From positions 1-8,463 of the forward strand of contig JAPULM010000561.1 of assembly GCA_027294925.1 (NCBI GenBank): 8,463 bases of DNA, given 5' to 3'. Under the pieces are notes generated by a model, which was given only the letters and a program-made list of their open reading frames with translations, did no database searches and was not told the origin of the DNA. This document shows positions 4,751-7,262 of the stretch, one piece after another (position 1 is the stretch's first letter; each line of letters begins with the position of its first letter). The position numbers were made by a program, and so were the translations under genes. Origin of the DNA: a bacterium. GTDB taxonomy: Bacteria > Tectomicrobia > Entotheonellia > Entotheonellales > Entotheonellaceae.

Positions 4751-5204
4751 ATGCAAATCGATGTATCAACGGCACTAGGTGGTGTCTTGCTGCAACTGTG
4801 CGCCATGAACGCTGCCGGTTGCCGGTTCTTCAAGCACCGATGAAATGCGGGCGCTGACGGCCTCTGAGGCCGGGGCTGCTATTATCGAACTCAATTTGGC
4901 CGATCCGCATGCGGTGTGCAACACGGGTGGCGCCTGCAACATCAACGTGGTGCGTGCGATCTTGTCCCAGGTGCGAGATACGCAGGTCGTAGCGCCTCTC
5001 GCGGTTAAACCTACCCCCTTTCAAACCCGGGCACATCTGAACGACACGTTGCACTTGTTGCAACAGATGGCGGTACAGATTGGCGGTGCGGTGCAGCACA
5101 AGGGGCCAGACTTGTTTGGTCAATTGAAGGCGAACTTAGCGACCTTGCTGCAACAAAATGGTTATAACACGCTGAGCGACTTGCGTCGGGCTTCTCAAGC
5201 TTGA
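4751..5204 (+). pseudogene. pyrD: Dihydroorotate dehydrogenase (pyrD) pseudogene
   Basis: The remnant begins with ATG 4751 behind AAGGGA and reads MQIDVSTALGGVLL...MNAAG, the N terminus of class 1 DHODH, then stops at TGA 4841. From about 4821 the next frame continues as GSSSTDEMRALTASEAGAA, the expected following segment. A perfect tandem duplication of GCCGGTT (4814-4820 and 4821-4827) causes the shift: removing one copy joins MNAAG to SSSTDEM in frame. Then two large pieces are missing. GAAI runs directly into IELNLADPH (family ELNLSCPN, where the Cys is the catalytic base; here it is Asp), and after PLAVKPTPFQT the text jumps to MAVQIGGAVQHKGPDLF (family LQIGTALHKEGPAIF). The end, QQNGYNTLSDLRRAS, matches the DHODH C terminus. 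About half of a normal 310-aa enzyme remains and it cannot be active. The downstream part (4845-5204) is still open, which could mislead annotation as a 119-aa protein. Confidence 0.85.
4814..4827 (+). repeat. 7-bp tandem duplication causing a frameshift
   Basis: GCCGGTT occurs twice in direct succession (4814-4820, 4821-4827) inside the pyrD remnant. Deleting either copy restores a continuous DHODH-like reading frame across this point, so it is the likely cause of the frameshift, typical of replication slippage. Confidence 0.85.
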
Positions 5205-5365: not shown

Positions 5366-5467
5366 ATGGCAGGAAGCAATCTTCTCACTGGCCAGGGAGA
5401 GGGAAAATTCATGTCCAGGTACATCGAAAGACGTGAGGCAAGCGACACCGCGGAAAAACAGACATGA
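5366..5467 (+). CDS. Doubtful 33-codon ORF overlapping the MBL gene start
   Basis: ATG 5366 has AAGGGG eight bases upstream and opens a frame of 33 residues; an internal ATG at 5411 has AGAGGG seven bases upstream and would give 18 residues (MSRYIERREASDTAEKQT). The TGA stop (5465-5467) overlaps the ATG of the next gene as ATGA, a layout that usually means translational coupling. That would help the MBL gene, whose own ribosome site is poor. However, the first half of the frame runs through a degenerate copy of the dispersed palindrome (5381-5403), so the peptide need not be functional. I do not recognise it; a leader peptide or chance frame are both possible. Confidence 0.3.
   Translation: MAGSNLLTGQGEGKFMSRYIERREASDTAEKQT
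5381..5403. repeat. Dispersed palindrome copy C (degenerate)
   Basis: CTTCTCACTG (5381-5390), two bases, then CAGGGAGAGG (5393-5402). The right arm is identical to that of copy B at 6874-6883 and the left arm matches copy B at 8 of 10 positions. It lies in the leader of the MBL gene and supplies the AGAGGG just before ATG 5411. Confidence 0.55.
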
Positions 5468-6138
5468 GCGAGACACTCTACCTCAAACAGATCGAATGCG
5501 GGCCGATGCAGAATTATGTCTACCTGATCGGTGACCCGGTAACCCGGCAAGCGGCCGTCGTCGACCCGGCCTGGGAGATCGACCGCATTGTGCAGACAGC
5601 CGAGGCGGACGGCTACACCATCAGCCAAGTACTGATTACCCATACGCATCAGGATCATACGGGTGGACACCTGTTCGGGCGCGATATTCCTGGCGTGGTG
5701 GAGCTTCTTGACGTGTTGGACATCCCGGTCTATGTGCATAAAACCGAGACGCATATTTTGAAGCATGTTCCGGACTCTTCCAAAGTACCGACTGAAAGTG
5801 AACAAATCGTTGAACTGGGCAGCGATGTGCAGATCCGGCTCATTCACACGCCTGGGCATACGCCAGGCTCACAGTGTTTTCTCGTTCAAAACAAGTTGGT
5901 CGCAGGCGACACCATGTTCATTGGCGCCTGCGGCCGAGTCGATCTGCCGACCAGCAGCCCTGAGGAGATGTACGACAGTTTGACCAATAAGCTCATGCGG
6001 CTCGATGATGCGACCGTATTATATCCGGGTCATAACTATGCCTCGAAACCTACCTCAACCATTGGTGAGGAACGTCAGCAAAACCCGTTTGTCCAATTCG
6101 CTTCATTACAGGATTTTCTTCGCGCCATGGGGCGTTAA
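5464..6138 (+). CDS. Metallo-beta-lactamase-fold hydrolase, glyoxalase II/ETHE1-like
   Basis: The 224-aa product has a full binuclear metal site: H60, H62, D64 and H65 in THTHQDH, H132 in HTPGHTPGS, D149 in AGDT and H190 in YPGHNY. GACGRVDLP...EEMYDSL after the GDT motif is the signature of hydroxyacylglutathione hydrolases and the related persulfide dioxygenases (GCGRxD, one-metal in ETHE1). These enzymes cleave thiol esters such as S-lactoylglutathione or oxidise glutathione persulfide; which applies here is open. Start: 5464 is the only in-frame ATG after the upstream stop at 5434, but its ribosome site is weak. Its ATG overlaps the stop of the small ORF before it. Downstream the DsbA-like gene starts 34 bases after the stop, so the two are very likely co-transcribed and may work on the same thiol chemistry. 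Confidence 0.9.
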   Translation: MSETLYLKQIECGPMQNYVYLIGDPVTRQAAVVDPAWEIDRIVQTAEADGYTISQVLITHTHQDHTGGHLFGRDIPGVVELLDVLDIPVYVHKTETHILKHVPDSSKVPTESEQIVELGSDVQIRLIHTPGHTPGSQCFLVQNKLVAGDTMFIGACGRVDLPTSSPEEMYDSLTNKLMRLDDATVLYPGHNYASKPTSTIGEERQQNPFVQFASLQDFLRAMGR

Positions 6139-6172
6139 CTAGGTAATTTCAAACCGGAGGGAGGCATGAGAG

Positions 6173-6838
6173 ATGCGTGCAAAATATAACTTAACCATCT
6201 GGAACTGTTACGTTTGACCATACGCCTGGCGAGCCGCGGAGTGGCTCGAAAGAGTGCAAGAGAAACTTGGCGACACCCTGCAAATCACCTGGAGGTCGTT
6301 CTTGTTGGAACAGATTAACAGCCGGCGTGGCGATACCTGGAAAGCATGGGAAGATCGCCGCTTTACTAGCCGTGATATCCCGCCGCACGAAGCGGTAAAA
6401 AGCGTGTTGGCTGAGCAAGGCATAGACGCCTTCAAACGCTTTCACATGGCGACGTTTCGCGCCTATCACAATGATAAACGCGATTTGTCTAACCCCCTCG
6501 AGCTTTTGGCCATTGCGCGTGAGATGGACATTGACACCACCAGCCTGAGCGAAGACCTGCGCACTCGTAAATATCGCGATGCTGTTGGTGCAGATCACGA
6601 GGAAGCCGACGAGAAATACGATATCTTTGGCGTGCCGACCATCTTGTTTGATGATCAGCAGCCCACCTTCGTGAAACTGGGAGCCGGCGCCTGGGAAGGG
6701 ACAGATGACCTTGAGCTGTTCTACTCCCTATGTGATATTGCTGCCACCCGGCCCTATGTGTTAGAGATTAAAAAACCGGCTTCTGCCGCCTTAGCCGAAG
6801 TCTCGGCGTCGCGCTATCGCAAGGAGCGAGGCAACTGA
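6173..6838 (+). CDS. DsbA/FrnE-like thioredoxin-fold oxidoreductase, putative selenoprotein with in-frame TGA
   Basis: From ATG 6173, with GGAGG (6160-6164) eight bases upstream, the frame reads MRAKYNLTIWNCYV-TGA-PYAWRAAEWLERVQ and continues open to 6838 (221 codons counting the TGA). The TGA at 6215-6217 falls where DsbA-superfamily proteins have the first Cys of C-P-x-C at the start of helix 1, so I read it as selenocysteine 15. The position of the second Cys is Ala18 (UPYA), a pattern like the CPWA variants known in this superfamily. C12 lies three residues before, giving C-x-x-U. A helical insert follows, then GVPT (153-156) with P155 as the cis-Pro that faces the active site, as in all thioredoxin folds. 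A hairpin at 6230-6248 fits a SECIS element. Alternatives: a single Cys-to-stop mutation, or a start at GTG 6254 that would lose the whole active site, which I find unlikely. Role: probably thiol-disulfide or glutathione-type chemistry together with the upstream hydrolase. No signal peptide is seen, so cytoplasmic. Confidence 0.75.
6230..6248 (+). promoter_or_regulatory. Putative bacterial SECIS hairpin
   Basis: CGAGCC (6230-6235) pairs perfectly with GGCTCG (6243-6248) around the 7-base loop GCGGAGT. The loop begins with G and opens 18 bases after the TGA, inside the range known for bacterial SECIS elements read by SelB. The lower stem is not paired. The hairpin also encodes RAAEWLE, so some pairing may follow from codon choice; I have not tested how often this arises by chance. 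Confidence 0.5.
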
Positions 6839-6920: not shown

Positions 6921-7262
6921 ATGGCAAACAAATCATTTTATCCGGTAGAAATTCAGCGCGATGACCAAGGCGCCATGCGCATTCAATGGGATGACGGGCA
7001 CCAAAGCCGTTATGCCTATACCGCCTTGCGCGATGCATGCCCTTGCGCCACCTGCCGTGAGCAACGCGCCATGCCGCCGCAAGGCGACCCGTTCCAGATG
7101 GTTGACAGCGCAGCCGCAACGCCGGAGCCAACCCACCTCAGCGCAGTGGGAAATTACGCGCTAAATATCGAATGGCGTGATGGACACCGCACCGGCATCT
7201 ACCCCTGGGATATGCTGCGCGCCATGTGTCCTTGCCCGCAATGTATAGCATCGCCAGCCTGA
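6921..7262 (+). CDS. DUF971 family protein (gamma-butyrobetaine hydroxylase-like N-terminal domain)
   Basis: The 113-aa product matches the small DUF971 family: Y-P-V-E-I start, IQWDDGH (about 21-27), YAYTALRDACPCATCRE (31-47), and NIEWRDGHRTGIYPWDMLRAMCPCPQC near the end. Two CPCxxC motifs (C40, C42, C45 and C103, C105, C108) bracket the domain. In the hydroxylase enzymes this domain binds zinc through Cys and His; the stand-alone proteins are thought to be linked to iron-sulfur or redox metabolism, but no precise role is established. Start: ATG 6921 is chosen to match the family's short N terminus. TTG 6915 is an in-frame alternative, and neither has a clear ribosome site, which fits weak or coupled translation from the upstream operon. 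It is convergent with MaoC, 35 bases away. Confidence 0.85.
   Translation: MANKSFYPVEIQRDDQGAMRIQWDDGHQSRYAYTALRDACPCATCREQRAMPPQGDPFQMVDSAAATPEPTHLSAVGNYALNIEWRDGHRTGIYPWDMLRAMCPCPQCIASPA

What the first reader, a model, noticed from the sequence alone, without database searches (positions are those of the whole stretch)
6173..6838. Putative selenoprotein: DsbA/FrnE-like protein with TGA at the nucleophilic cysteine
Seen: strong ribosome site and ATG at 6173, homologous N terminus (LTIWNCYV-x-PYAWRAAEWL), one TGA at 6215-6217, then an intact frame to 6838 with the cis-Pro GVPT. Known: in DsbA-superfamily proteins this exact position is the catalytic Cys, and bacterial Sec often replaces a redox Cys. 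Inference: Sec15 is the active-site nucleophile. The second Cys of the motif is Ala, while C12 gives a C-x-x-U, so the resolving partner would be C12 or an external thiol. Gene callers would start at GTG 6254 and lose the active site.
Basis: partly seen in the sequence, partly recalled or inferred. Interest (0 to 1): 0.9.

Follow-up and report, generated by a model that had tools for sequence, protein, structure and literature searches.

The report
Selenocysteine DsbA-like protein, new motif
A bacterial gene that looks broken by a stop codon most likely makes a whole selenium-containing redox enzyme of the DsbA-like fold with an unusual active site, and its relatives nearly always sit next to the same small, probably metal-binding, protein gene.

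Summary
Confirmed and extended. Frame 6173-6838 is open except for TGA 6215-6217. All 20 orthologues found in 20 genomes carry TGA at that codon, in the motif CYV-U-PYA. Six of six database homologues that hold the N terminus have Cys there. A hairpin fitting the published bacterial SECIS rules follows the TGA in 21 of 21, against 114 of 3,702 codons further on in the same genes. tRNA-Sec is in 20 of 20 carrier genomes, selB over cut-off in 18 of 20. So this is very probably a selenoprotein that databases hold mostly truncated. New: CxxUPYA (usual second Cys is Ala; the only always-present Cys is at -3) is not among the two DsbA-like forms, UxxC and DxxUP, of a 2026 catalogue; and a DUF971/PF06155 gene lies downstream in 20 of 21 loci, but in 0 of 18 DsbA-type TGA loci with other motifs. 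Function is inferred: a cytosolic selenol-disulfide oxidoreductase with Cys12 as resolving partner, working with the CPCAxC DUF971 protein. No experiment was done, and the window's own genome is not held.

The parts
6173..6838 (+). selenoprotein gene, 221 aa with Sec at residue 15 (motif C12-Y-V-U15-P-Y-A18), DsbA-like thioredoxin fold
   Evidence: (PF01323 59.9 bits, cut-off 25.6)
6156..6164 (+). Shine-Dalgarno-like GGAGGGAGG before ATG 6173
   Evidence: sequence; like sites in 21 of 21 loci, as short as AAGG in two
6206..6208 (+). codon of Cys12, the only Cys present in 21 of 21 loci
6215..6217 (+). in-frame TGA, read as selenocysteine 15
   Evidence: 21 of 21 loci; Cys in 6 database homologues
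6230..6248 (+). SECIS-like hairpin: 8 bp, loop GGA at 6238-6240, 20 nt between TGA and loop
   Evidence: rules quoted from PMC13188914 Fig. 2 legend
6254..6256 (+). GTG at which gene callers start
6629..6640 (+). codons of G-V-P-T 153-156, the cis-Pro loop; F152-T156 invariant in the alignment
6921..7262 (+). DUF971 / GBBH-like_N (PF06155) gene, CPCATC motif, conserved downstream partner
5464..6138 (+). metallo-beta-lactamase-fold hydrolase gene, upstream neighbour here and in L001 only; not counted as part of the module

Best explanation
The gene encodes a DsbA-family selenoprotein: UGA 6215-6217 is recoded as selenocysteine under a SECIS hairpin whose stem starts 12 nt after it (supported by comparison; the stated confidence is for this core). 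Inferred, with my own odds: Sec15, at the N-cap of helix 1, is the attacking residue; it forms a mixed selenenylsulfide with a substrate, Cys12 at the end of strand 1 resolves it as a C12-Sec15 selenenylsulfide, and a cellular thiol or thioredoxin restores it (about 0.6). The usual resolving Cys at +3 is lost (Ala18) and its role has moved to -3. The protein works in the cytosol with the DUF971 protein encoded next door (about 0.7), whose CPCAxC (plus H or C) site looks like a metal-binding site; the selenoprotein may keep those thiols reduced or repair them (about 0.2).
Against: No DNA of the Cys forms and no genome of the window's own organism could be read. Covariation in the hairpin is weak: one pair with a double change, 106 of 500 shuffles as high; the structure rests on conservation and the within-gene control. 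Folding z-scores of the 41-nt stretches are modest, -0.6 to -2.5. In L073 (24), L084 (16), L074 (9) and L103 (8) other codons also reach the hairpin energy of the TGA site, and 9 of 21 genes have at least one conforming hairpin beyond codon +7. Synonymous windows of 6, 7, 8 and 10 codons at this place do not rank first. selD was not found over cut-off in G142, nor selB in G387 and G394 (draft or partial genomes). No reaction, substrate or reductant is known; the DUF971 link is gene order and co-occurrence only, and G053 breaks the gene order.
Confidence: 0.93

Rival explanations
1. Pseudogene or sequencing error: the TGA is a real or false stop and the protein, if any, starts at GTG 6254.
For: Databases hold the 194-aa form; a GGAG lies 11 nt before GTG 6254, inside the hairpin, in the window and the four relatives that have this GTG; no experiment.
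Against: TGA in 21 of 21 loci; purifying selection on both sides (with one upstream exception); Shine-Dalgarno-like site before an upstream start codon in 21 of 21; the active site lies upstream of GTG; codon 28 is GTG in only 5 of 21 loci and CTT in 13, ATT, CTG and TTG in one each.
Confidence: 0.02
2. TGA is read as another amino acid (code change or readthrough to Trp or Cys) instead of Sec.
For: A read-through frame alone cannot tell.
Against: TGA is the terminal stop of the window gene itself and of two of the 20 orthologues; the residue in homologues is Cys; SECIS-like hairpin and Sec machinery are present.
Confidence: 0.02
3. A selenoprotein that works with Sec alone (DR2335 has a single Cys): C12 is structural, and a low-molecular-weight thiol resolves the intermediate, as in kappa-class GST or Rv2466c-like enzymes. 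This rivals the inferred mechanism, not the selenoprotein reading.
For: Nearest fold is DR2335 with one Cys in CPYA; sister genes HEYH-U-PWA have no Cys at -3 or +3.
Against: Cys at -3 is kept in 21 of 21 Sec forms and 6 of 6 Cys forms, while the sister motifs have Asp or Glu there.
Confidence: 0.3
4. C12 and Sec15 bind a metal ion or cluster and hand it to the DUF971 protein.
For: CPCAxC in the partner; a PF10609 iron-transfer ATPase gene beside DUF971 in G010 and about 0.6 kb from one DUF971 gene of G053; DUF971 of HCF101 Fe-S carriers has a CxCxxC motif that may bind metals (PMC7980591, passages).
Against: Recalled, not searched: no such metal site in a DsbA-family active site, and Sec in place of Cys usually points to redox catalysis.
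Confidence: 0.1

Closest known systems
DsbA-like selenoprotein form 1 (PF01323, UxxC; Sargasso Sea and GOS papers)
   Same: Domain, Sec at the N-cap nucleophile position, bacterial SECIS after the codon
   Different: Has Cys at +3 and, in the 11 DFL/DYL-U-PWC loci seen here, Asp at -3; ours has Ala at +3 and Cys at -3
DsbA-like selenoprotein form 2 (PF01323, DxxUP; PMC13188914 Table 1)
   Same: Domain and U-P
   Different: Asp at -3 in the motif given; ours has Cys in 21 of 21. Only the table row was seen, not the representative sequence
GOS 'DsbA 3' (PF01323, UxxV; PMC2398784)
   Same: Sec with no Cys at +3
   Different: Val at +3 (table row); L032 (FDYL-U-PFV) looks like this one
DR2335 of Deinococcus radiodurans (7dk9, 7dka)
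   Same: Best fold and sequence match, CPYAWR around the catalytic position
   Different: Cys not Sec, no Cys at -3; PMC8945050 (passages) reports a single conserved Cys and no known function
Rv2466c, FrnE, kappa-class GST, HCCA isomerase
   Different: FrnE has CP(W/F)C; the other active sites and thiol cofactors are recalled, not tested here

Membership tests
Bacterial selenoprotein | in-frame TGA conserved at one position with Cys in homologues | tested here: met
   21 of 21 TGA; 6 Cys forms
Bacterial selenoprotein | bacterial SECIS after TGA: loop 3-9 nt, stem 4-16 bp, G in first two loop positions, 16-37 nt spacing, energy at most -7.5 | tested here: met
   21 of 21; rules from PMC13188914 legend. 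Covariation inconclusive
Bacterial selenoprotein | Sec machinery in the genome | tested here: met
   in relatives only: tRNA-Sec 20 of 20, selB 18 of 20 carriers; own genome not held
Bacterial selenoprotein | selenium found in the protein | not testable with these tools
   needs experiment
PF01323 DSBA | score over the curated cut-off | tested here: met
   59.9 against 25.6 bits
DsbA-like selenoprotein form 1 | UxxC motif | tested here: not met
   UPYA in 21 of 21
DsbA-like selenoprotein form 2 | DxxUP motif | tested here: not met
   CYVUP in 21 of 21; member sequence itself not compared
FrnE | CP(W/F)C active site; in many, C-terminal CxxxxC | tested here: not met
   window protein has C12, Sec15 and one unconserved C187 only; definition from PMC8945050 passages
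Rv2466c-like (PF22234) | score over the curated cut-off | tested here: not met
   23.6 against 27 bits
Rv2466c-like (PF22234) | mycothiol dependence | not testable with these tools
   needs assay
DR2335-type DsbA-like | same fold with single catalytic Cys in CPYA | tested here: inconclusive

The most novel reading that the evidence does not exclude
A two-gene module, a CxxU-P-Y-A selenoprotein plus a DUF971 protein with a CPCAxC metal site, in which selenium chemistry serves the assembly or repair of a metal (iron-sulfur or zinc) carrier: a Sec-dependent step in metal-cofactor upkeep that I found in none of the papers searched.
Probability: 0.2. Interest if true: 0.85.

Novelty: new variant of a known kind. 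Interest (0 to 1): 0.6.

Why it matters
It adds a selenoprotein subfamily that gene callers mostly miss (114 of 120 listed database homologues start after the Sec position, 69 of them exactly at residue 28; some of the rest may be cut by contig ends). It shows a redox motif in which the second catalytic residue seems to have moved from +3 to -3. And it ties a selenoprotein to DUF971, a domain whose role in the Fe-S carrier HCF101 is called elusive in print (PMC7980591, passage), so the pair gives that open question a small, testable bacterial system.

Tried and rejected
Rfam scans of the window (E up to 10) and of five relatives' loci (E up to 1) found no SECIS family; three sub-threshold hits to unrelated families were ignored. 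Covariation of the hairpin is not beyond shuffles, so it is not claimed. Scan of viral contigs: no relative. The named genome collection gave one locus only, with patterns cut from the window protein. NCBIfam at E 0.001: no model for P0001, P0005, P0009, L001, L095 or L032; P0114, P0121, L030 and L088 hit NF041057 far below its cut-off. A second protein search with an alignment listed 120 of 203 matches, again with the same six Cys forms; the 13 new ones (P0122-P0134) are 185-202 aa, and the five I read start after the Sec codon. They are not in the tree or the counts.

Literature, in the held library only: no paper holds both 'selenoprotein' and 'Entotheonella'; two hold 'Tectomicrobia' and 'selenocysteine', and the passages seen are not about this gene; one holds 'selenocysteine' and 'DUF971', a plastid Fe-S review seen in the listing only; one search listed ten papers, of which I read parts of three (PMC13188914, PMC9312934, PMC5029168). 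Haft and Tolstoy 2025 is not held, so it could still describe this family; its rows in Table 1 of PMC13188914 (section 7, parts 1 and 2 of 3 read) do not include it. The deep-Sep 2025 main text has none of the six terms looked for, DsbA, PF01323 and CxxU among them; supplements were not open to me. No held paper names 7DK9.

Considered and dropped: alternative genetic code, pseudogene, gene starting at GTG 6254 (see rivals). The MBL-fold neighbour matches in L001 only among 14 other loci, so it is not part of the module.

Full report
Observation. The window frame 6173-6838 is as described: ATG 6173, one TGA at codon 15, then open to the TGA stop 6836-6838. The protein is a PF01323 DSBA member, 59.9 bits against a cut-off of 25.6.

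Is the TGA kept? The named genome collection gave one orthologue, L001, 'Candidatus Tectomicrobia bacterium KatS3mg131', with TGA at the same codon. Four of five genomes of its phylum carry it, all with that TGA; the fifth (G005) has only a distant relative with another motif, also with TGA at the site. Of 386 relatives searched, 24 had any match; those with E below 1e-50 are the same four plus G053, G142 and G279, each with one TGA. In the phylum of G142, 15 of 18 genomes carry the orthologue, all with the TGA; G053's phylum holds one genome. That makes 20 orthologues in 20 genomes, and with the window 21 of 21 have TGA in CYV-TGA-PYA. The pattern CYV-stop-PYA was what the script looked for, but none of the 21 loci failed it, with a looser pattern, shows the same motif in the 20 it printed (L074 fell outside its position filter). 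Genes fetched twice (such as L001/L010, L029/L103, L030/L073, L031/L078) were counted once. Weaker matches in those tables are other DsbA-family proteins, some without any stop; they are not orthologues and are not in the 21.

Cys forms and truncated entries. The protein search returned 139 matches, the best 120 listed. Six contain the N terminus; all six have Cys at 15 and Cys at 12. The other 114 start after position 15, 69 of them exactly at residue 28. For these 114 the TGA is inferred from the missing start, not seen, and some may be cut by contig ends. In a tree of 130 rows (listed proteins under 165 aa left out) the Cys label needs three changes, forced by well-supported branches, among truncated and Sec rows. 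This fits repeated Sec-to-Cys replacement if the truncated rows are Sec forms.

SECIS. The window has an 8-bp stem (6230-6237 with 6241-6248) and loop GGA, 20 nt after the TGA. The legend of Fig. 2 in PMC13188914 gives the bacterial rules (passage): loop 3-9 nt, stem 4-16 bp, G in the first two loop positions, spacing 16-37 nt, energy at most -7.5 kcal/mol. My script found such a hairpin at 21 of 21 TGA sites and at 135 of 3,849 other codons of the same genes. Of those 135, 21 lie at codons +1 to +7, where the same hairpin can be seen; beyond +7 it is 114 of 3,702, 53 of them as strong as the gene's own TGA site, and 12 of 21 genes have none. Codons +6 to +10 after the TGA are the most synonymously conserved 5-codon window, 0.937 against a gene mean of 0.561, first of 205; windows of 6, 7, 8 and 10 codons do not rank first here. 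Seven pairs hold in 126 of 126 cells of 18 distinct sequences, but covariation is not beyond shuffles, 106 of 500. The hairpin is supported by conservation and the within-gene control, not by covariation.

Machinery. tRNA-Sec matches of 72.6 to 77.6 bits (cut-off 47) occur in 20 of 20 carriers (7, 13). Weak matches elsewhere are likely other tRNAs, since all 14 control genomes ring. Of the 21 genomes that lack the orthologue (G037 set aside), 8 have matches of 66 bits or more. In the second phylum two of the three non-carriers (G388, G398) have no match over cut-off and one (G396) has. selB is over cut-off in 18 of 20 carriers, missing in G387 and G394. selA is over cut-off in 6 of 7 carriers tested, with a contig-edge fragment in G004; selD in 6 of 7, missing in G142. 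The window's own genome is not held. Seven of ten window genes match L001 in the same order, so the organism is probably a Tectomicrobia relative.

Start site. A Shine-Dalgarno-like match of at least four bases lies before an upstream start codon in 21 of 21 (ATG in 20; in L084 the script chose a GTG over an ATG two codons earlier). Most are AAGGAG, AGGAGG, GGAGG or AGGAG; L087 has AAGGA, L074 and L076 only AAGG. Against this reading, a GGAG also lies 11 nt before GTG 6254, within the hairpin.

Other DsbA-type TGA genes. The same searches brought 18 loci with TGA at the same position of the domain but other motifs: 11 with D(F/Y)L-U-PWC, 6 with HEYH-U-PWA, 1 with FDYL-U-PFV. So Sec at this place is common in these groups, and CxxU-P-Y-A is one of at least four types.

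Partner gene. A DUF971 (PF06155) gene follows on the same strand in 20 of 21 CYV-U-PYA loci: the four Tectomicrobia-phylum genomes, 15 of 15 of the second phylum, and the window. In L106 it is displaced by about 1.3 kb. It is absent within the flank at G053 and at 18 of 18 loci of other motifs, of which two (L096, L097) have too little downstream sequence to count, leaving 0 of 16. PF06155 occurs in 11 of 11 carriers tested and 2 of 15 genomes without the orthologue; nine further carriers were not put into that search. In seven aligned partners CPCA(T/N)C is invariant, and a later His of one group is Cys in the other, as for a metal ligand. That GBBH binds zinc in this domain is recalled; my paper search for it found nothing. 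Elsewhere DUF971 lies beside a NUBPL-type iron-transfer ATPase gene (G010) or about 0.6 kb from one, divergently (one of two copies in G053); in G013, the other non-carrier, I saw no such gene by eye. I read this as a functional pair with a metal-related theme; the role is inference.

Comparison with what is known. PMC13188914 Table 1 (119 families or subfamilies; section 7 parts 1 and 2 of 3 read) lists PF01323 as UxxC and as DxxUP only, and treats selenoproteins with the same domain but different Sec motifs as separate subfamilies. PMC9312934, PMC2398784 and PMC1088965 (passages) list UxxC and, in the GOS paper, UxxV for DsbA. By that rule CxxUPYA is a new subfamily, hence 'new variant of a known kind'. 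Haft and Tolstoy 2025 could not be read.

Confidence. Sec recoding in a DsbA-family oxidoreductase: 0.93. The C12-Sec15 mechanism: about 0.6. A working pair with DUF971: about 0.7. The metal-upkeep idea: about 0.2. These are my judgement.

Noticed in passing
L088-L102, L104 (phylum of G142, and G053): Further DsbA-family genes with TGA at the same position: DFL/DYL-U-PWC and HEYH-U-PWA; the latter has no Cys at -3 or +3 and may be another uncatalogued subfamily.
   Followed up: partly
L032 (G037): DsbA-family gene with FDYL-U-PFV, like the UxxV type of the GOS paper.
   Followed up: partly
G002 and G003, selD matches: selD matches lie in long open frames of 775 and 853 codons without TGA, whereas the selD of G001, G004, G053 and G279 has one TGA; possibly a fusion.
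   Followed up: no
L118 (G010) and L120 (G053): DUF971 beside or near an Mrp/NUBPL iron-transfer ATPase gene, PF10609.
   Followed up: partly
window 4845-5204: Open frame of 119 aa without a Pfam match.
   Followed up: no
window 5464-6138: MBL-fold hydrolase (glyoxalase II-like, under the NCBIfam cut-off) directly upstream; matched in L001 but in none of the 13 other loci compared.
   Followed up: partly
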